In this document: one piece after another, positions 17,016 through 26,540 of the stretch | Layout of the letters: each line of letters begins with the position of its first letter | Numbering within the stretch: the stretch's first letter is position 1 | Source of the DNA: Rhodobacteraceae bacterium F11138 | GTDB lineage: Bacteria > Pseudomonadota > Alphaproteobacteria > Rhodobacterales > Rhodobacteraceae | Reading direction: 5' to 3' | NCBI GenBank assembly: GCA_016521575.1 | Contig: JAEKDP010000003.1 | Coordinates: 248,001-312,000, forward strand | Length of the DNA stretch: 64,000 nt | Program-made: the position numbers and the translations under genes | Notes under the pieces: generated by a model | Database searches by the model: none | The model's input: only the letters and a program-made list of their open reading frames with translations | What the model was told of the DNA's origin: nothing

Positions 17016-18401
17016 TCAGAATTTCGATCCCACATCCAGCGAGACGGAAAGCTCGCGGGATGAAAACCGGCTGAAGTTCGAGCTCTTGCGCCCGGTGCGC
17101 AGGCGCAGGATCGGAACGAAACCGGCATAATCGTACCGGTCGAAGATCAGGCTGAGATCGCCGTATGCGGATGTATCGTTGCGTTGGGTTGGCGGGATGA
17201 ACAGGCTGGCGATGAAACGGTCATATCGCGTATGCCCCAGCACCAGGCCGATGGACAGCTGGGCCGGACCGATGGCGCGCCCCAATGTATAGCTCGCCCG
17301 GATTGACGCTGAATCATAGGTCCCGTTGGGGCTGTCGGCCCGGGCGTTCTGCAGCGCCAGTGCCAGCCCGAGCACGTCGCCATTCTGCAACCGGGTGCCA
17401 AATTCGGCCCTTACCCCCAGGACGCGGGCGTCGTTGGTGGTGTAGAGCGCGCGAAAGCGCTGTTCCAGATCGGCACGCAGATGCACCCGGGACGTTTTGC
17501 CCAGTGCCCAGCTGCGGCGGCCCTTCAGGCGGGCGAACCGATAGCTGCGTTCGCCGCCGTACCAGCTTTCGCCAAAGGCCAGTCCGATGTCGCCGCTGTG
17601 CTTGCTGTCGTCGGGGCCGATGGCAAAGGCGTGGGACAGCGACAGTTCGGCGTAGGTCGAGCCGAAATCGGATCCCGTGGCTTGTGGGGCCATGTCCTTG
17701 GCTTCGGACGACAGGGCGACGCGTTCTATGTACACGCGCGCACCCAGCGATGTGGCGCTTCTGGCGGTCGTGTGCAACCGATAGGATGGCGCGATGTCAA
17801 GCGAAGCGATCAGACCCGACAGGGCCAGCGCGGCGCCGTTGATCGTGCCGCCGTCCGGGACCCCGTCGATGATGTTCAGCGATGTGTCCGAGCCATTGTT
17901 GACGTTGTTGGATGGGCGCACCCCGCCCTGCAGCCGCAAGGACCAGGGATTGACCTGCCGCAACATGCGATAGTCCCGCGCCACGCGCTCTTCGTCGCGT
18001 TCCGTGGGGGCATGGATGGCAGTGCGGCGCAGCCAGAGTTGAGACAGGCTGTAGCGTTCGGCCTGAAAGGCCATGCGCGATGCCATCTGTGCGGCTTCGA
18101 ACCGGGCCGGCCCCGAACCCGCATAGCGATAGGACAGGGCCGCCGCCTTTCGCGCCAGATCCGGATCGCCCAGCCGAGCGTTTGCCTTGGCCAGGATGTA
18201 ATAGACCAGCGGGTCTTTGGGGTCGGTCCTGAGCAGGCTCTTGGCCAACAGGATCGCCGTGCCGGGGTCACCGTTCTCCAGCGCGTGTATGGCCAGGTTG
18301 CGCGCCTCGGCGGGGGCAAGCTGGACGCGGTCGGGGGTCTGGGCGACCGCGGGCAGCATCATCGAGGCGCACAGGACCAGACCGGCGAATATGGCCCGCA
18401 C
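17016..18401 (-). CDS. Slam-like surface lipoprotein assembly modifier (TPR plus DUF560 barrel)
   Basis: Encodes 461 residues from a GTG codon with GGACGG-like sequence upstream; the product begins with a signal peptide ([21 protein letters not shown]). Residues about 28-150 form TPR-like helices ([39 protein letters not shown]). Residues about 160-461 form a beta-barrel ending in Phe (SLDVGSKF), consistent with the DUF560 domain of Slam proteins. Slams move certain lipoproteins across the outer membrane in Neisseria and others. The gene directly upstream, 11 bases away, encodes a TbpB-like lipoprotein, the typical cargo, which strengthens the call. Confidence 0.78.
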
Positions 18402-18412
18402 AGTCCGGTCCG

Positions 18413-19303
18413 TCAGTTGCTGCGTTCCAGAACGAACAGCCCGTATTCTTCTTCGTCATCCAGCCCGTCGACGTGATCCTTGGCATATAGTCCGCCGGCG
18501 ACGGCGCTGGAATTCACGCCTCCGAAGGTGCCGCTGTAATCGCCCTTGGTCTGGTGGGCGACGGTGATTTCCCCGGTGAAGGTGCCGTCGTCCGAGATGT
18601 CTGTGGGCGCGATTTCCAGATCCGGCAGGTCAAGCCCCGCAGCAACGTAGTTGCGGTTGTACACCGTGCCCTTGACCCGGTTGGTGGAAAAGTCGGCATT
18701 GATCCGTGCCTGGCCATAGACGCGCGCGGCCTGTCGCGGGGTCACCGCAGGATCGGTTCCGGGCGGCACCGGCAGCAGGGCGTTTCCATTGTCGGGATAG
18801 TTCATCAGCCCGACATATTCTCCATCATACCGCACATCGGTGTTTTCGCCATTCGCGCCGGGCCGGTCATAGGCCCCCGAACGCGCATAGGCGACACCGC
18901 CGTTGTAATACCCGTCCAGACCACCGGTTACGACCAGCACGCCCTGGGTGCCGTCCACGTCGCGGGCATAGGATGTCGAATGGGTGTTCAGCGCATCCGG
19001 CTGGCGGGTAAAGGCCTGATACTGCCCGCCAGGCGTATCCAGCGCCGCGGCGCGGTCATAGCCGACCGGCAAGGGCGTTCCGTTAAACGCCACGCCAGTG
19101 ACCACCAGGGCCGAGTTGTTCGGGTCGGACGTATCGGGGCTGAAACTGGCGGCATCCAGATCCCCGGCCACGGTTTCGGCCCTGGGATCGACCGGTTCTG
19201 TCGGATCGACCGGCTCGGGCTCGGTGTCTTCGATGAACGGATTGCTTCCGCTACAGGCAGACAATGCGGCTGCCACCAGGAGTCCGTACCAGATCCGTTT
19301 CAT
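18413..19303 (-). CDS. TbpB-like surface lipoprotein, probable Slam cargo
   Basis: Encodes 296 residues. The start at 19303 gives a lipoprotein signal with lipobox LSAC (Cys17). An acidic Pro-rich linker (EPEPVDPTEPVDP) follows. The C-terminal part ends with the barrel pattern found in transferrin-binding-protein-B-like domains: DGTFTGEITV, KGDYSGTFGGVNSSAVAGG, LYAKDHV and EYGLFVLERSN. The protein should be displayed on the outer surface if the Slam gene downstream acts on it. A ligand cannot be inferred; heme, metal or host protein binding are all possible for the fold. It is transcribed divergently from thyX. Confidence 0.75.
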   Translation of the reverse strand: MKRIWYGLLVAAALSACSGSNPFIEDTEPEPVDPTEPVDPRAETVAGDLDAASFSPDTSDPNNSALVVTGVAFNGTPLPVGYDRAAALDTPGGQYQAFTRQPDALNTHSTSYARDVDGTQGVLVVTGGLDGYYNGGVAYARSGAYDRPGANGENTDVRYDGEYVGLMNYPDNGNALLPVPPGTDPAVTPRQAARVYGQARINADFSTNRVKGTVYNRNYVAAGLDLPDLEIAPTDISDDGTFTGEITVAHQTKGDYSGTFGGVNSSAVAGGLYAKDHVDGLDDEEEYGLFVLERSN

Positions 19304-19488
19304 GTTTCTTGCCCTTGTTTCAACGCTTTTTCCGCCCAGCCTTGAACGTCTTGCGTGTGAAGTCAACGGCAACACACGTTAAAAGAGAATTACCCGGACA
19401 GCTGTTGCCATTATATGGCGGTTCACCTGTGTCCCAACCCCAGATATAGTCAACGTCTCAACAGATTCTGCAGGGAAAGGAATCGCGT

Positions 19489-21052: not shown

Positions 21053-21259
21053 TCATAATAGCGTCAGATTGGCCGCCATCTCGCGACCGTCACGGCCCTC
21101 TTCCAGATCGTAGTTGACCTTTTGATTGTCGGCCAGGCCGGTCAGGCCCGATCTTTCCACAGCCGAGATATGAACAAACACATCCTTCCCTCCGGTGTCC
21201 GGAGCGATGAATCCGTAGCCTTTGGTCGTATTGAACCACTTCACGGTGCCGGTTGGCAT
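21053..21259 (-). CDS. Cold-shock domain protein (CspA family)
   Basis: Encodes 68 residues forming one cold-shock domain. RNP1 is KGYGFI and RNP2 is VFVHIS; the start [10 protein letters not shown] is canonical. Such proteins bind single-stranded RNA or DNA and act as RNA chaperones. The 5' leader is long (at least 100 bases before any upstream gene), as usual for csp genes, with AGGAGAC before the ATG. A paralogue lies at 41953-42159. Confidence 0.95.
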   Translation of the reverse strand: MPTGTVKWFNTTKGYGFIAPDTGGKDVFVHISAVERSGLTGLADNQKVNYDLEEGRDGREMAANLTLL

Positions 21260-21470
21260 TTCCCGTGTCTCCTTCTACTTGCCGCCCCGAAAACGCGGAG
21301 CCCTTGACGGCACGCTGCCGATCCTGTGCCCGAACCACCGGGGTGGCGCGGGCGCACAATGGCAGGTTGTACCTGATGTCAGGATCGCACGACCCGGCAA
21401 AAAATCAAGGAAAAGGGGCTGTGTTCTTGCCGAATGCCGGTTATTTCCACACAGGAAAGTGAGGTGAGAC

Positions 21471-21788
21471 ATGGTGATATACGGGCTGAAAACCTGCGAT
21501 ACATGCCGCAAGGCGTTGAAATTGCTGCCGCAGGCGCAATTCGTCGATGTGCGCGCGCAGGGTGTGCCCTTGCCTGTATTGCAAGCCGCAGAACACGAGT
21601 TTGGCAAGGCTTTGCTCAATACGCACTCAACCACCTGGCGCGGTCTGGATCAGGACCAGCGCGACCGCCCGGTTCTGGATCTTCTGGCGGACCATCCGGT
21701 GTTGATGAAACGGCCGCTGATCGATGTGGACGGTCAGTTGTATCTGGGCTGGACACCAGAGGTGCAGGCCCGGCTTGGTGCGGTCTGA
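21471..21788 (+). CDS. ArsC/Spx-family reductase-like protein
   Basis: Encodes 105 residues. The N-terminal thioredoxin-like strand and active site read MVIYGLKTCDTCRKAL, giving a CxxC at residues 9-12. The later LMKRPLIDVDGQLYLGW is the cis-Pro region of the ArsC/YffB family. The closest functional types are glutaredoxin-coupled arsenate reductase and the uncharacterised YffB. No ars operon is nearby, so arsenate reduction is not supported by context. It converges on the DoxX gene, 20 bases away. Confidence 0.85.
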   Translation: MVIYGLKTCDTCRKALKLLPQAQFVDVRAQGVPLPVLQAAEHEFGKALLNTHSTTWRGLDQDQRDRPVLDLLADHPVLMKRPLIDVDGQLYLGWTPEVQARLGAV

Positions 21789-21808
21789 CGGCGATTGCCG
21801 TGATGGGG

Positions 21809-22357
21809 TCAGGCCAGGCGGCCCATGATCCGGTCCAGTGACAGCGGCCCGGCCCCCTTTATGACGATGATCAGCAGAACCGTGATCCACAGCAGGCGCT
21901 GATCCATGATGACGCTGTCGGGTATGCCATCGAACCAGGCGCCAAGGGTCTTGGGGTCGCTGCCGCCGTGGCCGACGATATCCGTGGCGGACTGGATGAT
22001 GATGAACCCGATCATGCCGATGGCCGACAACCGCCCCATCAGCCCAAGTACCACCAAAGCCGGCAAGATGAATTCGGCCCACATGCCGATCAGTGCGATC
22101 AGCCAATGGAACATGCCCAATTGCGAACTGTCATAGCCGACCGCCTCCATGGCACGCGGAAAGATCTGAACATAGGCACCATCAGAAGGCATCAACAGCC
22201 CGAGCAGCCCGTCGCCCACCTTGGTCATGGCCGATTTCCAGAAATACATCAGCAGAACGGCGGCAAAGGTGAACCGTGCCAGCGTCGGCAGGATCGCTCC
22301 GGACATGCGGTCCAGCCAGTCGAACAGGGCGTTGTGCAGGGAAATCAGGGTGTTCAT
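21809..22357 (-). CDS. DoxX-family membrane protein of the buf operon
   Basis: Encodes 182 residues with about four membrane segments (for example TLARFTFAAVLLMYFW, HWLIALIGMWAEFILPALVVLGL, LLWITVLLIIVIKGAGPLSLD). The final KGAGPLSLDR pattern is typical of DoxX. DoxX proteins often accompany DUF2282/DUF692/DUF2063 genes in bufferin loci, where they may serve redox or membrane functions. The start is 5 bases from the bufC stop, so it is the last gene of this operon. Confidence 0.88.
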   Translation of the reverse strand: MNTLISLHNALFDWLDRMSGAILPTLARFTFAAVLLMYFWKSAMTKVGDGLLGLLMPSDGAYVQIFPRAMEAVGYDSSQLGMFHWLIALIGMWAEFILPALVVLGLMGRLSAIGMIGFIIIQSATDIVGHGGSDPKTLGAWFDGIPDSVIMDQRLLWITVLLIIVIKGAGPLSLDRIMGRLA

Positions 22358-22361
22358 GGGC

Positions 22362-23117
22362 TCAGGCCTTTTGGGTCAGGGACGTCAGGGCATTGTCGGT
22401 CAGCAACAGTGTAAGCGTGGCGGTCGGATCGAAACCCGGGGCCCTGCCTTGTGCGTTTGCCAGCGCGGTTTCCAGAGGATCGCCCCGTTGCAGGGATTGT
22501 ATCCATGCGGCGCCACCCGGCGGCAGCAGATGTGGCGCCGGATCAAAAGCAGCGCGCGTGATCAGCACATCCTGCCGTTCATGGGCCGGTTTGGGCGCGT
22601 CTTCGCGGGTGTTGAAACGCCAGATGTCATACAGCGGCCAGTCCGAGCACAGCACCCGAACGGCCGGTGCCAGGGTGACGCGAGTGGCCATCAGGGCCGT
22701 GGGGGTCAGAGCGGCCAGTTCGGCGGGATCCAGCGGCGTGCTGTCGGCGGCGTGATAGGATCGGCGCAGGGCCAGTTCCAGCCGTGCGACATCGGGCAGA
22801 TACCCGAGATGGGCCACCTGCGGCAGCTTGGCCAGAAAATCCGGCATGGCCTGGCCATAGTGCATCATCAAAGGCGAATCGGGTGGATGTGCGCGCAGGA
22901 AAAGGCGTGAAAGCCCATCCATGTTCTTTTGTCCCAGCAGCCTGGTCAGGATCGGAAAGCCGACGCGCAGAGCCTCGATCAGAGAGTGGGTGACATTGTT
23001 GCGATAGACCGTGAATCGGGCATCGGCGGCATGCCCGGCCCCGTCATTCAGCCCGTCGGGCGCAGGGCGCCCAGGGTCCAGAAGTGCTGCGCGGAACATA
23101 TCCTGGGAAACGCTCAT
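22362..23117 (-). CDS. bufC: DUF2063 (HvfC/BufC-type) partner of the MNIO enzyme
   Basis: Encodes 251 residues. The start at 23117 overlaps the bufB stop by 4 bases (ATGA). The N-terminal domain shows the family signatures [23 protein letters not shown] and [25 protein letters not shown], then [23 protein letters not shown]2063 proteins bind the DUF692 enzyme and present the precursor peptide for modification, comparable to the MbnC role in methanobactin synthesis. C-terminal part (about 165-251) is a second small domain. Assignment follows family plus operon position. Confidence 0.92.
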
Positions 23118-23974
23118 GCGGCGGCATGGTCCAGCACCTGCGCGGCGCGGTTGGCCTGGGCGCGCAATACGGGCCAGTCCGGCACGTCGTTGTCCCATTC
23201 CACCAGCACCGGTTTGGGTCCGGCGCGTTCCAGCGTATGGGCCAGCAGATCCCAGACCGGATCGGCCACCGGTTTGCCGTGGCTGTCGATCAGCAGGGGC
23301 GCGCCGTGTTCATCCGCGTCCTGGTCATGGCCGCCGACATGGATTTCGCCGACGCGATCCATCGCGAAAGCATCGATATAGGCCTGCGGCGAACCGCCGA
23401 GATTGACTGCGGACACGAAGACGTTGTTCACATCCAGCAACAGCCCGCACCCGGTCCTGCGGGTCAGTTCCGACAGGAAATCGGTTTCGGACCAGGTGCT
23501 TTCGTCGAACGCCAGATAGCTGGCCGGGTTTTCCAGCAGCATTCTTCGCCCCAGTTCGGCCTGGACCTGATCGATGTGATCGGCCACGGATTGCAGCGTG
23601 CGGTTGGTATAAGGCAGCGGCAGCAGATCGTTCAGGAATTCGGCCCCGTGGGTGGACCAGGCGAGGTGCTCGGAAAAGCTGGCCGGGTTGAGCCATGCGA
23701 TCAGATGTTTCAACCGGGCCAGATGGACCGGGTCCAGCGGGGATTGCCCGCCGATGGACAGGCCGACGCCATGCACCGAGATCGCGAACCGCTCGGACAG
23801 GGCGCGCAGCTGGGCCAGAGGCCGGCCACCGTCGCCCATGTAGTTTTCGGCATGGATTTCCAGCCACGCGACCGGGCCCGGGTCTTGTTGGATCTGGTCG
23901 AAATGCTGGGGTTTATAGCCGACACCCGGTGCGGCGGGCAGAAAATCGGATGTGTCGGTGGAATCCAGCATCAT
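23114..23974 (-). CDS. bufB: DUF692 multinuclear non-heme iron oxidase (MNIO), BufB-like
   Basis: Encodes 286 residues folding as a TIM barrel. Candidate iron ligands are visible in their usual settings: His68 (SVHGVGLS), Glu102-His103 (SEHLAW), Glu148 (LLENPASY), Asp181 and Asn184 (LLDVNNVFV), His212 and His216 (IHVGGHDQD), Asp230 and His232 (IDSHG) and Glu259 (VEWDND). The family (MbnB, TglH, BufB) oxidises cysteine residues of a ribosomal precursor peptide. Here the precursor is the DUF2282 gene 78 bases upstream, and the partner DUF2063 gene overlaps downstream. Product chemistry, such as thiooxazole formation, is inferred from bufferin literature. Confidence 0.95.
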
Positions 23975-24016
23975 GTGCCTGTCAGTCAGTGGGCCGGGGG
24001 TGGGCCGCGTTGTAAG

Positions 24017-24039
24017 GGCGGGCCAGGTTTCGGCCCGCC
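24017..24039 (-). other. Intercistronic hairpin between bufA and bufB
   Basis: A perfect 8-base stem (GGCGGGCC with GGCCCGCC, 7-base loop) lies 14 bases after the bufA stop and before bufB. No T-run follows, so it is more likely a partial terminator or mRNA stabiliser that lets the precursor gene be expressed above the enzyme genes. Confidence 0.5.
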
Positions 24040-24052
24040 GCCAGAGTGGGCA

Positions 24053-24355
24053 TTATGCAGGCAGATCGCGGTCCAGCGCGGTCAACGATCCCTTGCGGGC
24101 CTCGCCATCCGCCATCGCCGGAAGCTCCATCGCTTCGCACGAGCCGGCATCCACGAGGGTCCAGGCGTTGCCCTGGTAATCCACGGTGGAGGTTCCGGCA
24201 CAGGTGGTGCCGGGGCCGGCGGCACAGTCGTTCTGACCGGCGAGCGCGACGCCATAGCATTTTTCCTTGGACTGGGCACTGGCCGTGGTGGCGGACGCAC
24301 CCAGGGCCGCGGCGACGGCGCTTGCGACGGCCAGGGTCTTGGCGGTATTGGACAT
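24053..24355 (-). CDS. bufA: DUF2282 bufferin-type RiPP precursor
   Basis: Encodes 100 residues, with GAGGGAG 7 bases before the ATG. A Sec signal peptide ([10 protein letters not shown] to about residue 28, ending ASAQ) acts as leader. The core carries exactly four Cys: Cys33 (EKCYGVA), Cys44 (QNDCAA), Cys52 (TTCAGT) and Cys73 (GSCEAM), the arrangement of DUF2282 proteins now called bufferins. After cysteine modification by BufB/BufC the peptide is exported and, in characterised cases, binds copper in the periplasm. It leads the operon bufA-bufB-bufC-doxX. Confidence 0.93.
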
Positions 24356-24456
24356 GGTATAACTCCCTCAAAACAGGTTGATTGGCTCGGTTCGTGAACC
24401 CGAATTTAGCGTGCCACAGACCCCACGGGAAAGTCACGAGCCCGTGTTTCACGCCT

Positions 24457-24483
24457 CCGTCAGGGAATGTTACGCTCTGACGG
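24457..24483 (-). promoter_or_regulatory. Dyad with ECF-like GTAACA element upstream of bufA
   Basis: The inverted repeat CCGTCAG-N13-CTGACGG lies about 100 bases upstream of the bufA start, after thrS ends. On the bufA strand the loop contains CGTAACA, followed about 16 bases later by GTGAA, resembling the GTAAC-type -35 and GAA-type -10 of ECF sigma promoters. It could instead be a weak thrS terminator, although no T-run follows. Confidence 0.3.
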
Positions 24484-24581
24484 GCAAAATCGTCTGAAAT
24501 TGCCGGGACAATGTCAAATGTTTCAATCCGGCCCGGGCGATCGCTGCCCGCGGCCGGATTGCCGTGTCTGCCTGCGCGGCG

Positions 24582-26540
24582 CTACAGCAGGTCCGGCGGG
24601 GTCGCTTCGCGCCCGAGCGCGCTTGCAACCGCGGCAAGAGGCTCGACGCTGGTGCGTTTCTCGCCCAACCGGCGCACTGTGACCGTGCGGTCCTCGACCT
24701 CGCGTGCGCCGACCGCCAGGATCACCGGCACCTTGCCGACCGAGTGTTCGCGCACCTTGTAGTTGATCTTTTCGTTGCGCATGTCGGCCTCGGCGCGCAC
24801 GCCCGCGGCGCGCAATTCGGTGACCACCTCGTGCACATAGTCATCCGCCTCGGACGTGATCGATGCGACCACGACCTGGCGCGGGGCCAGCCAGAACGGC
24901 AGCTTGCCGGCGTGTTCCTCGATCAGGATGCCGATGAAGCGTTCGAAACTGCCCAGTGTCGCGCGATGCAGCATATAGGGCCGGTGTTTCGAGCCGTCCG
25001 CACCGATGAAATTGGCGTCCAGCCGCTCGGGCAGGTTCGGATCGACCTGAAGCGTGCCGCATTGCCAGTTGCGGCCGATTGCGTCCGTCAGGGTGAATTC
25101 GAGCTTGGGACCATAAAACGCGCCTTCGCCTTCGAGGATCTCAAAGGCATAGCCCGCAGCCTTGCAGGCATCGCCAAGCGCCTTCTCCACGAAATCCCAG
25201 CTTTCATCGCTGCCGATGCGCTTTTCCGGCCGGGTGGACAGTTTGATGGTCCAGTCGTGAAAACCCAGATCGGCATAAACCTTGGACAGGAAGGCGATGA
25301 ACTTCGCGGTTTCGGATTCGATCTGATCCTCGGCGCAGAAAATATGGCCGTCATCCTGCGTGAACCCGCGCACCCGCATGATACCGTGCAGCGCGCCGGA
25401 TGGTTCATAGCGGGCACAGGATCCGAATTCGGCCATGCGCAGCGGCAGGTCGCGATAGGATTTCAGCCCCTGGTTGAAAACCTGAACGTGACAGGGGCAG
25501 TTCATGGGTTTCAGGGCGTTGACCGCCTTTTCGCGGGCATGGTCTTCGTCGACTTCGACGATGAACATGTGCTCCTGATATTTGTCCCAATGGCCCGAGG
25601 CTTCCCACAGTTTGCGATCGACCACCTGCGGCGTGTTGACTTCGACATAGCCGTCGCGTTCCTGCATCCGGCGCATATAGTCCTGAAGCGTGGTGTAGAT
25701 TTTCCAGCCGTTGGGATGCCAGAAAATCTGCCCCGGTGCTTCTTCCTGCATGTGAAACAGGTCCATCTCGCGGCCCAGCTTGCGGTGGTCGCGTTTGGCG
25801 GCCTCTTCCAGCATGGTGAGATGCGCGCGCAGCTTTTCCTTGCCGGTGAAGGCCACGCCATAGATGCGCTGCAGCATGGCGCGATCGGAATCGCCCCGCC
25901 AGTATGCGCCCGCGATGCTCATCAACTTGAACGCATCGCCCGGCACCTGGCCGGTGTGTTGCAGATGCGGGCCGCGACACAGATCCTGCCAGTCGCCGTG
26001 CCAGTACATGCGCAGCGGCTCGTCGCCGGGAATCGCTTCGATCAGTTCGACCTTGTAGGGTTCGTTGCCCGCCTTGTAGAACTCGATCGCCCGGTCGCGG
26101 TCCCAGATTTCGGTCGTCACGGGTTCGCGCTTGTTGATGATTTCCTTCATCTTCTTTTCGATCAGCCCCAGATCCTCGGGGGTGAACGGTTCGGCGCGGT
26201 CGAAATCGTAATACCAGCCGTTTTCGATCACCGGGCCGATGGTGACCTTGGTGTCGGGCCAGATTTCCTGAACCGCACGGGCCATGATATGCGCCAGATC
26301 GTGGCGCACCAGTTCGTTGGCCTGTGCTTCGTCTTTCATGGTGTGGATGGCGATGTCGGCGTCCGACTGAATCGGCCAGGCCAGATCCCAGTGCTGGCCG
26401 TTCACCGTGGCGCTGATTGCCTTCTTGGCGAGCGAGGTGGAAATATCGGCGGCGACCTCGGCGGCGGTGATACCGGCCTCGTAGGATCGTGCATTGCCAT
26501 CGGGAAGGGTAAGAGAGACTTTTTTCGAATCCAGGGCCAT
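24582..26540 (-). CDS. thrS: Threonyl-tRNA synthetase
   Basis: Encodes 652 residues, with AGGAGG 7 bases before the ATG. Domain order is a TGS domain (1-65), the editing domain with an HxxxH site (His80, His84 in RHDLAHIM), the class II catalytic core including PMNCPCH (345-351, zinc-binding Cys) and a C-terminal anticodon-binding domain. The enzyme charges tRNA-Thr and hydrolyses Ser-tRNA-Thr. It is divergent from the esterase lipoprotein gene at 26736 and its end lies 227 bases before the bufA start. Confidence 0.98.

What the first reader, a model, noticed from the sequence alone, without database searches (positions are those of the whole stretch)
21809..24355. Complete bufferin-type RiPP operon bufA-bufB-bufC-doxX
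A DUF2282 precursor with Sec leader and exactly four core Cys is followed by the DUF692 MNIO enzyme, an overlapping DUF2063 partner and DoxX. This is the recently described bufferin architecture, in which Cys are oxidised and the exported peptide binds copper. The EKC, NDC, TTC and GSC contexts are retained. The native product here appears unstudied.
Basis: partly seen in the sequence, partly recalled or inferred. Interest (0 to 1): 0.85.

Follow-up and report, generated by a model that had tools for sequence, protein, structure and literature searches.

The report
Bufferin copper-peptide operon with own operator
These four genes make a small exported copper-binding peptide of a recently described and very common kind; the new part is a conserved DNA switch in front of them, which suggests that marine Roseobacter relatives turn the peptide on with a different, still unidentified regulator.

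Summary
On the minus strand, bufA (24355-24053), bufB (23974-23114), bufC (23117-22362, ATGA overlap) and doxX/bufD (22357-21809) form an intact Buf1 bufferin operon. BufA matches DUF2282, BufB passes NCBIfam's MNIO_BufB equivalog cut-off, BufC matches DUF2063 and its model matches TglI and NGO1945. DoxX is below Pfam's cut-off in the window protein, but all 34 aligned orthologues match it at E <= 0.01. One correction: published work says only the two central Cys (here Cys44, Cys52) are modified. The operon is ordinary: 110 of 150 sampled family genomes carry DUF2282. Two features I did not find in the papers searched. (1) A tandem operator, TGAC-N6-GTGA-N3-ACG-N5-GTGA (two NCAC-N6-GTGA boxes 15 bp apart), at 24434-24462, once in this genome. 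At <=2 mismatches it precedes bufA in 65 of 92 NrsF-less genomes and 0 of 18 NrsF-bearing ones, which carry sigma-F promoters instead (9 of 18 strict, against 0 of 92). (2) A stem-loop after bufA, conserved in structure but not sequence (97 of 110). The operon is known; its regulation here looks rewired to an unidentified regulator.

The parts
24053..24355 (-). bufA: Buf1 (DUF2282) bufferin precursor, 100 aa, Sec-like leader about residues 1-28, Cys33/44/52/73
   Evidence: Pfam PF10048 86.2 bits, cut-off 22.4; Cys spacing 11-8-21 shared by 109 of 110 family genomes, the other having only 2 Cys
23114..23974 (-). bufB: MNIO bufferin maturase, 286 aa
   Evidence: PF05114 342 bits; NF050167 MNIO_BufB 367.3 against 310; PDB 3bww E 3.2e-43; H68, H103, E148, D181, H212, E259 invariant in 16 aligned sequences (their role as metal ligands is recalled, not from a call)
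22362..23117 (-). bufC: DUF2063 plus RRE-type partner protein (PME type 1), 251 aa
   Evidence: PF09836 81.6 bits (on the longer mechanical ORF); AlphaFold2 model pLDDT 92.2 matches TglHI entries 8hci_A E 1.7e-6 and 8hi7_A E 2.4e-6, and NGO1945 3dee E 1.5e-3
21809..22357 (-). bufD: DoxX-family membrane protein, 182 aa
   Evidence: PF07681 18.6 bits, below cut-off 23.6, but 34 of 34 aligned orthologues match DoxX at E <= 0.01; helical model, pLDDT 83.7, no PDB match at E <= 0.001
24434..24462 (-). putative operator, TGACGGAGGCGTGAAACACGGGCTCGTGA: two tandem NCAC-N6-GTGA boxes, 15 bp apart (first box with one departure, TGAC)
   Evidence: 0 mismatches, only such site in this genome, ten others at 2 mismatches; <=2 mismatches upstream of bufA in 65 of 92 NrsF-less and 0 of 18 NrsF-bearing family genomes
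24404..24410 (-). -10-like element GCTAAAT, its CTA 24 nt after the operator
   Evidence: CTA lies 23 or 24 nt after the operator in 32 of 65 genomes, at most 2 at any other distance; window letters. The alphaproteobacterial GCTANA -10 is recalled
24017..24039 (-). stem-loop in the bufA-bufB gap (GGCGGGCC/GGCCCGCC, loop 7), 13 nt after the bufA stop
   Evidence: a stem-loop after bufA beats shuffles (<=5 of 100 as good) in 97 of 110 family genomes against 10 of 110 for a control stretch. In the window alone the minimum-energy fold of the whole gap is a different pairing

Best explanation
This is a standard Buf1 bufferin operon of a Sedimentitalea-like roseobacter. BufA is made with a Sec leader; before export the BufB-BufC complex (iron-dependent MNIO plus RRE-bearing partner) converts the two central cysteines, Cys44 and Cys52, to 5-thiooxazoles (each -4 Da). 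The peptide is exported through Sec, trimmed, closed by a Cys33-Cys73 disulphide and binds copper in the periplasm. DoxX is an accessory membrane protein of uncertain role. Shown here: the genes, their family membership, conservation and order. Inferred from published relatives: the modification, export and copper binding. In addition (inferred from comparison), transcription is started by an unidentified regulator bound to two tandem NCAC-N6-GTGA boxes, the second of which lies where sigma-F bearing relatives keep the sigma-F -35 element, and a stem-loop after bufA probably sets bufA mRNA above bufBCD.
For: Families; solved relatives of BufB; BufC fold; all four genes in 80 of 80 named relatives and four Cys in 80 of 80; Cys spacing 11-8-21 in 109 of 110 family genomes. 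Literature: PMC12452194 (abstract, Introduction, Results, Discussion) and PMC12668002 (abstract, two of three parts of Results, passages). Operator. Stem-loop.
Against: No chemistry or copper binding was tested in this organism. DoxX is below Pfam's cut-off in the window protein. 27 of 92 NrsF-less genomes lack the operator at <=2 mismatches (17 of 92 at <=3), and 9 of 18 NrsF-bearing genomes lack the strict sigma-F site; one NrsF-bearing genome, G170, has two boxes and no GTAAC. The window itself has a sigma-F near-match (GTAAC-N17-TGAA, one base off) at -118. No regulator gene was identified. For the window alone the local stem-loop competes with another fold.
Confidence: 0.9

Rival explanations
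1. Same operon, but its main job here is a stress other than copper (gold, chromate, cadmium, oxidative or sulphur stress); copper is incidental.
For: Homologous operons respond to gold and copper in Legionella (PMC5413113, passages) and to chromate and cadmium in Caulobacter (PMC3511200, passages and two sections). The operator here differs from sigma-F, so the signal may differ too.
Against: Buf1 and captophorin products are reported to bind copper (PMC12452194; PMC12668002).
Confidence: 0.25
2. [quoted passage not shown]
For: sigma-F controls the bufA-bufB-bufC operons, one with doxX, in Caulobacter (PMC3511200); 18 of 110 DUF2282-bearing family genomes have NrsF. The window has GTAAC-N17-TGAA at 24448-24473, one base off GTAAC-N17-CGAA and two off the published GTAACC-N16-CGAA.
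Against: No NrsF match in this genome or its four sampled genus-mates; strict sigma-F site in 0 of 92 NrsF-less genomes. The near-match is at chance level (44 such matches at <=2 mismatches in the window, 38.9 expected, 26 of 100 shuffles as many), sits at -118 instead of -76 to -105 as in the nine strict sites, and its -10 part is not kept in the genus-mates. The sigma factor gene itself was not searched for, only NrsF.
Confidence: 0.04
3. The operator-like motif is not a regulator site but conserved by descent or by some other constraint.
For: The regulator is unknown; relatives share ancestry.
Against: 150 genomes drawn, 149 counted by genus; flanking columns carry little information while most motif columns carry 1-2 bits; fixed distance to a CTA element in 32 of 65; reversed pattern at <=2 mismatches in 0 of 110.
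Confidence: 0.1

Closest known systems
Buf1 bufferin operon of Caulobacter vibrioides/crescentus (CC3254-CC3257)
   Same: Gene order bufA-bufB-bufC-doxX with the families DUF2282, DUF692, DUF2063, DoxX (PMC3511200 Table 1; PMC12452194; that this is the studied Buf1 operon is recalled)
   Different: Caulobacter's is transcribed by sigma-F with CC3252 as its negative regulator; this genome has no NrsF match and no strict sigma-F site, but a tandem-box operator
gig operons of Legionella pneumophila and Cupriavidus metallidurans
   Same: Same four families (PMC5413113, passages)
   Different: The Legionella promoter responds to gold and copper; the passages seen name no metal regulator for it and suggest RpoS influence. 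Their upstream DNA was not compared here
Captophorins with EGKCG repeats (oxazolin, fontiphorin, gonophorin)
   Same: MNIO plus PME type 1 partner installing 5-thiooxazole (PMC12668002); oxazolin precursors also carry Sec signal peptides (PMC12452194)
   Different: Precursor here is DUF2282 with four Cys and no EGKCG repeats; HvfB, HvfC and HvfX models score below their cut-offs

Membership tests
Buf1 bufferin operon | DUF2282 precursor with the four conserved Cys | tested here: met
Buf1 bufferin operon | N-terminal Sec signal peptide on the precursor | tested here: inconclusive
   Read by eye: short start with one Lys, hydrophobic Ala-rich stretch, ASA-Q junction; no signal-peptide predictor was available
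Buf1 bufferin operon | MNIO of the bufferin type directly downstream | tested here: met
   NF050167 367.3 bits, cut-off 310
Buf1 bufferin operon | Partner protein with DUF2063 and RRE-type domain (PME type 1, about 250-260 aa) | tested here: met
   PF09836, 251 aa, model matching TglHI entries and 3dee along 228-231 alignment columns
Buf1 bufferin operon | DoxX gene (frequent, not obligatory) | tested here: met
   34 of 34 aligned orthologues match PF07681 at E <= 0.01; window protein alone 18.6 bits, below cut-off 23.6
Buf1 bufferin operon | Thiooxazoles on the two central Cys, copper binding | not testable with these tools
   needs mass spectrometry and binding assay
sigma-F/NrsF regulon | NrsF anti-sigma factor in the genome | tested here: not met
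   no PF06532 match in G000
sigma-F/NrsF regulon | GTAACC-N16-CGAA promoter upstream of bufA | tested here: not met
   no GTAAC-N17-CGAA within 300 bp upstream; a one-base-off near-match GTAAC-N17-TGAA at -118

The most novel reading that the evidence does not exclude
Across the Roseobacter/Rhodobacter family, bufferin operons have been rewired: lineages without the sigma-F/NrsF switch carry, at the place of the sigma-F -35 element, a second copy of a palindromic NCAC-N6-GTGA box and a housekeeping-type -10, so that an as yet unidentified activator, seemingly with this operon as its only strong target, runs the bufferin response; sigma-F lineages keep one box just upstream of the sigma-F promoter. 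A stem-loop that keeps its shape but not its sequence after bufA adds a fixed precursor-over-enzyme dosage.
Probability: 0.6. Interest if true: 0.55.

Novelty: new member of a known kind. Interest (0 to 1): 0.38.

Why it matters
The operon itself adds one more member to a large described family. The operator would give a handle on an open point: how the many bufferin operons without sigma-F are switched on, and by what. A site that occurs once in this genome and is shared by many genera is a ready bait for finding the regulator and so its signal.

Tried and rejected
Sigma-F near-match at 24448-24473 (GTAACA-N16-TGAA; 2 mismatches to the published form; one to GTAAC-N17-CGAA): rejected as the promoter, at chance level (44 found, 38.9 expected in shuffles); the conserved element overlaps it. 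With the last C left free, the sigma-F form is found in 9 of 18 NrsF-bearing and 2 of 92 NrsF-less genomes, the window's being one of the two and G007 at -174 the other. First genome search for the operator used a spacer one base too long; its 17 matches (all at 3 mismatches) are not used; repeated correctly. The consensus first drawn treats the boxes as direct repeats; I read as two tandem palindromic boxes. Rfam: 0 matches in the window at gathering score. PDB sequence search with BufC and BufA: 0 hits at E <= 1. Fold search with BufD: nothing at E <= 0.001. sigma-70 consensus promoters in 21300-24900: 0 found; terminator-like sites 2, expected 2.5. Literature searches bearing on bufferins, their families and their regulation; one search was swamped by the word 'buffering', searches found 0 papers; no listing named such a site. 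Only PMC12452194, PMC12668002, PMC3511200 and PMC5413113 were opened, none whole; the main text of PMC12452194 holds none of the words hairpin, stem-loop, terminator, promoter, operator, and PMC12668002 does not hold 'promoter'. The founding bufferin paper (Leprevost et al.) was not read. Regulator identity: not pursued beyond the neighbourhood; kept neighbours are an ArsC-like and a cold-shock protein (78 and 75 of 80 loci); no classical transcription factor among the seven window proteins traced there. Dropped rows: L052 (no bufA ORF called) was left out of the counts. Start codons were chosen by script; in G103 an ATG about 84 nt further upstream looks likelier, which shifts its distances.

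Full report
What is there. On the minus strand of the window, four genes lie head to tail: bufA 24355-24053, bufB 23974-23114, bufC 23117-22362 and bufD (doxX) 22357-21809. bufB and bufC overlap by ATGA; bufC and bufD are 4 bp apart; bufA and bufB are separated by 78 bp. A threonyl-tRNA synthetase gene (TGS, tRNA_SAD, class II core and anticodon domains) ends at 24582 upstream on the same strand; an ArsC-family gene faces the operon downstream. The window is G000:C22:248001-312000 of a 4.48 Mb genome. Its BufB is nearest to that of Sedimentitalea nanhaiensis (82% identity; the window's own record may be left out of that list). The 'same genus' genome G003 has a contig of the same length, 4,411,177 bases, as the S. 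nanhaiensis record, so the genus is probably Sedimentitalea.

Membership. Pfam: DUF2282 86.2 bits, MbnB_TglH_ChrH 342 bits and DUF2063 81.6 bits pass their cut-offs; DoxX at 18.6 bits does not (cut-off 23.6). NCBIfam names BufB an equivalog bufferin maturase (367.3 against 310) and leaves the HvfB, HvfC and HvfX models below cut-off; it has no hit for BufA. DoxX is supported by the relatives: 34 of 34 aligned proteins match it at E <= 0.01. BufB matches PDB 3bww at 3.2e-43 and a chain of the TglHI entry 8hci at 1.8e-18. The BufC model (pLDDT 92.2) matches 8hci_A, 8hi7_A (TglHI) and NGO1945 (3dee). The genome search found one MNIO match and one DUF2282 match.

How it works. From PMC12452194 and PMC12668002: the MNIO plus DUF2063/RRE partner makes 5-thiooxazoles, and in Buf1 the central Cys are the targets while the first and last form a disulphide. 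In this BufA these are Cys44 and Cys52 (central) and Cys33 and Cys73 (outer). The spacing 11-8-21 is the same in 109 of 110 family genomes; the remaining one has only two Cys. The mature peptide is reported to hold copper in the periplasm. None of this chemistry was tested here.

How common. DUF2282 is in 36 of 61 genomes of a mixed sample and in 110 of 150 genomes of the same family, counted as 149 genera. All four genes are in 80 of 80 named loci closest in BufB (this set was chosen by similarity to the window). The operon is therefore ordinary in this family.

The operator. Upstream regions of bufA in 27 family genomes showed a conserved element. Its form is TGAC-N6-GTGA-N3-ACG-N5-GTGA. Stacked over the 75 NrsF-less genomes with <=3 mismatches it reads as two tandem palindromic boxes NCAC-N6-GTGA, 15 bp apart, with a T two bases after the second box; the second base of the first box varies, and the flanks carry little information. 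In the window it is at 24434-24462, 78 bp before the bufA start. In the whole genome it occurs once without mismatch; ten other sites have 2 mismatches and none has 1. In 37 genomes, 8 of 8 mismatch-free matches lie before bufA (against places); with a shorter pattern 9 of 13 do, the other four being single sites in G006, G018 (two) and G021. In 80 named loci 74 have it at <=2 mismatches (30 at 0), and none has the strict sigma-F site. CTA stands 23 or 24 nt behind it in 32 of 65 genomes; in the window this is GCTAAAT at 24404-24410.

Exchange with sigma-F. Caulobacter drives its bufferin operons with sigma-F (GTAACC-N16-CGAA) under CC3252 (PMC3511200). NrsF is not found in this genome or its four sampled genus-mates; it is present in 9 of 61 genomes and, above cut-off, in 22 of 150 family genomes. 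Among the 110 family genomes with DUF2282: NrsF-bearing 18, strict sigma-F site 9, operator at <=2 mismatches 0 (one, G170, at 3); NrsF-less 92, strict sigma-F site 0, operator at <=2 mismatches 65 (75 at <=3). The reversed pattern at <=2 mismatches gives 0 of 110. Of these, 22 genomes were among those used to define the motif; in the 88 new ones the figures are 14 (5 and 0) and 74 (0 and 52), Fisher 5.9e-7 for the operator and 5.1e-5 for sigma-F. Fisher treats genomes as independent, which relatives are not. Against the reading: with the last C of the sigma-F site left free, 2 of 92 NrsF-less genomes also match, and one of them is the window (GTAAC-N17-TGAA, at -118, overlapping the operator). 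In 14 of 18 NrsF-bearing genomes GTAAC stands 70-110 bp before bufA, against 2 of 92, and in 11 of these 18 one box (<=1 mismatch) begins 19 or 20 bp before it (counted by me from the list; two more at 29-30). So the first box is shared and the second box sits where sigma-F genomes have their -35 element. G170 has NrsF, two boxes and no GTAAC; G153 has GTAAC and no box; G103, G108 and G148 have neither in the usual place (in G103 probably because the start was set too far downstream).

The stem-loop. In the family, a stem-loop begins a median 11 nt after the bufA stop. It beats shuffles in 24 of 27 of the first set against 1 of 8 from other families, in 75 of 80 of the named set, and in 97 of 110 of the family set with a control of 10 of 110. 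Its 5' arms are nearly all different (96 distinct in 97). Only 20 of 97 have four or more T in the next eight bases, so most are not classical terminators; a role in mRNA end protection or partial termination, giving more precursor than enzyme, is inference. In G011, with two bufA copies, the sequence after the second copy folds. For the window alone the whole gap prefers another fold.

Verdict. The finding is right and the system is known; this copy is a new member. What is worth keeping is the regulatory comparison, which points to an unidentified regulator.

Noticed in passing
17016-19375 (-): Two adjacent genes: a TPR-containing protein (Pfam TPR hits below cut-off) and a protein with a below-cut-off match to 'Slam-dependent surface lipoprotein' (30.8 bits against 80). 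May be a Slam-type surface lipoprotein pair in a roseobacter.
   Followed up: no
21471-21788 (+) and 21053-21259 (-): ArsC-family (CxxC) gene and a cold-shock gene are kept within the fetched stretch beside the operon in 78 and 75 of 80 named loci; functional link unknown.
   Followed up: partly
L030 (G011:C18:51500-60500): Tandem duplicate of bufA upstream of bufB; the stem-loop follows the second copy. A second genome with two DUF2282 matches in one place is G123.
   Followed up: partly
24524-24561: 10-bp perfect inverted repeat CAATCCGGCC/GGCCGGATTG between the threonyl-tRNA synthetase gene and bufA, perhaps the terminator region of the upstream gene.
   Followed up: no
L049 (G039:C61), upstream of its DUF2282 gene: Operator-like site with 2 mismatches in a genome of another family of the same class, so the element may be older than the family.
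   Followed up: no
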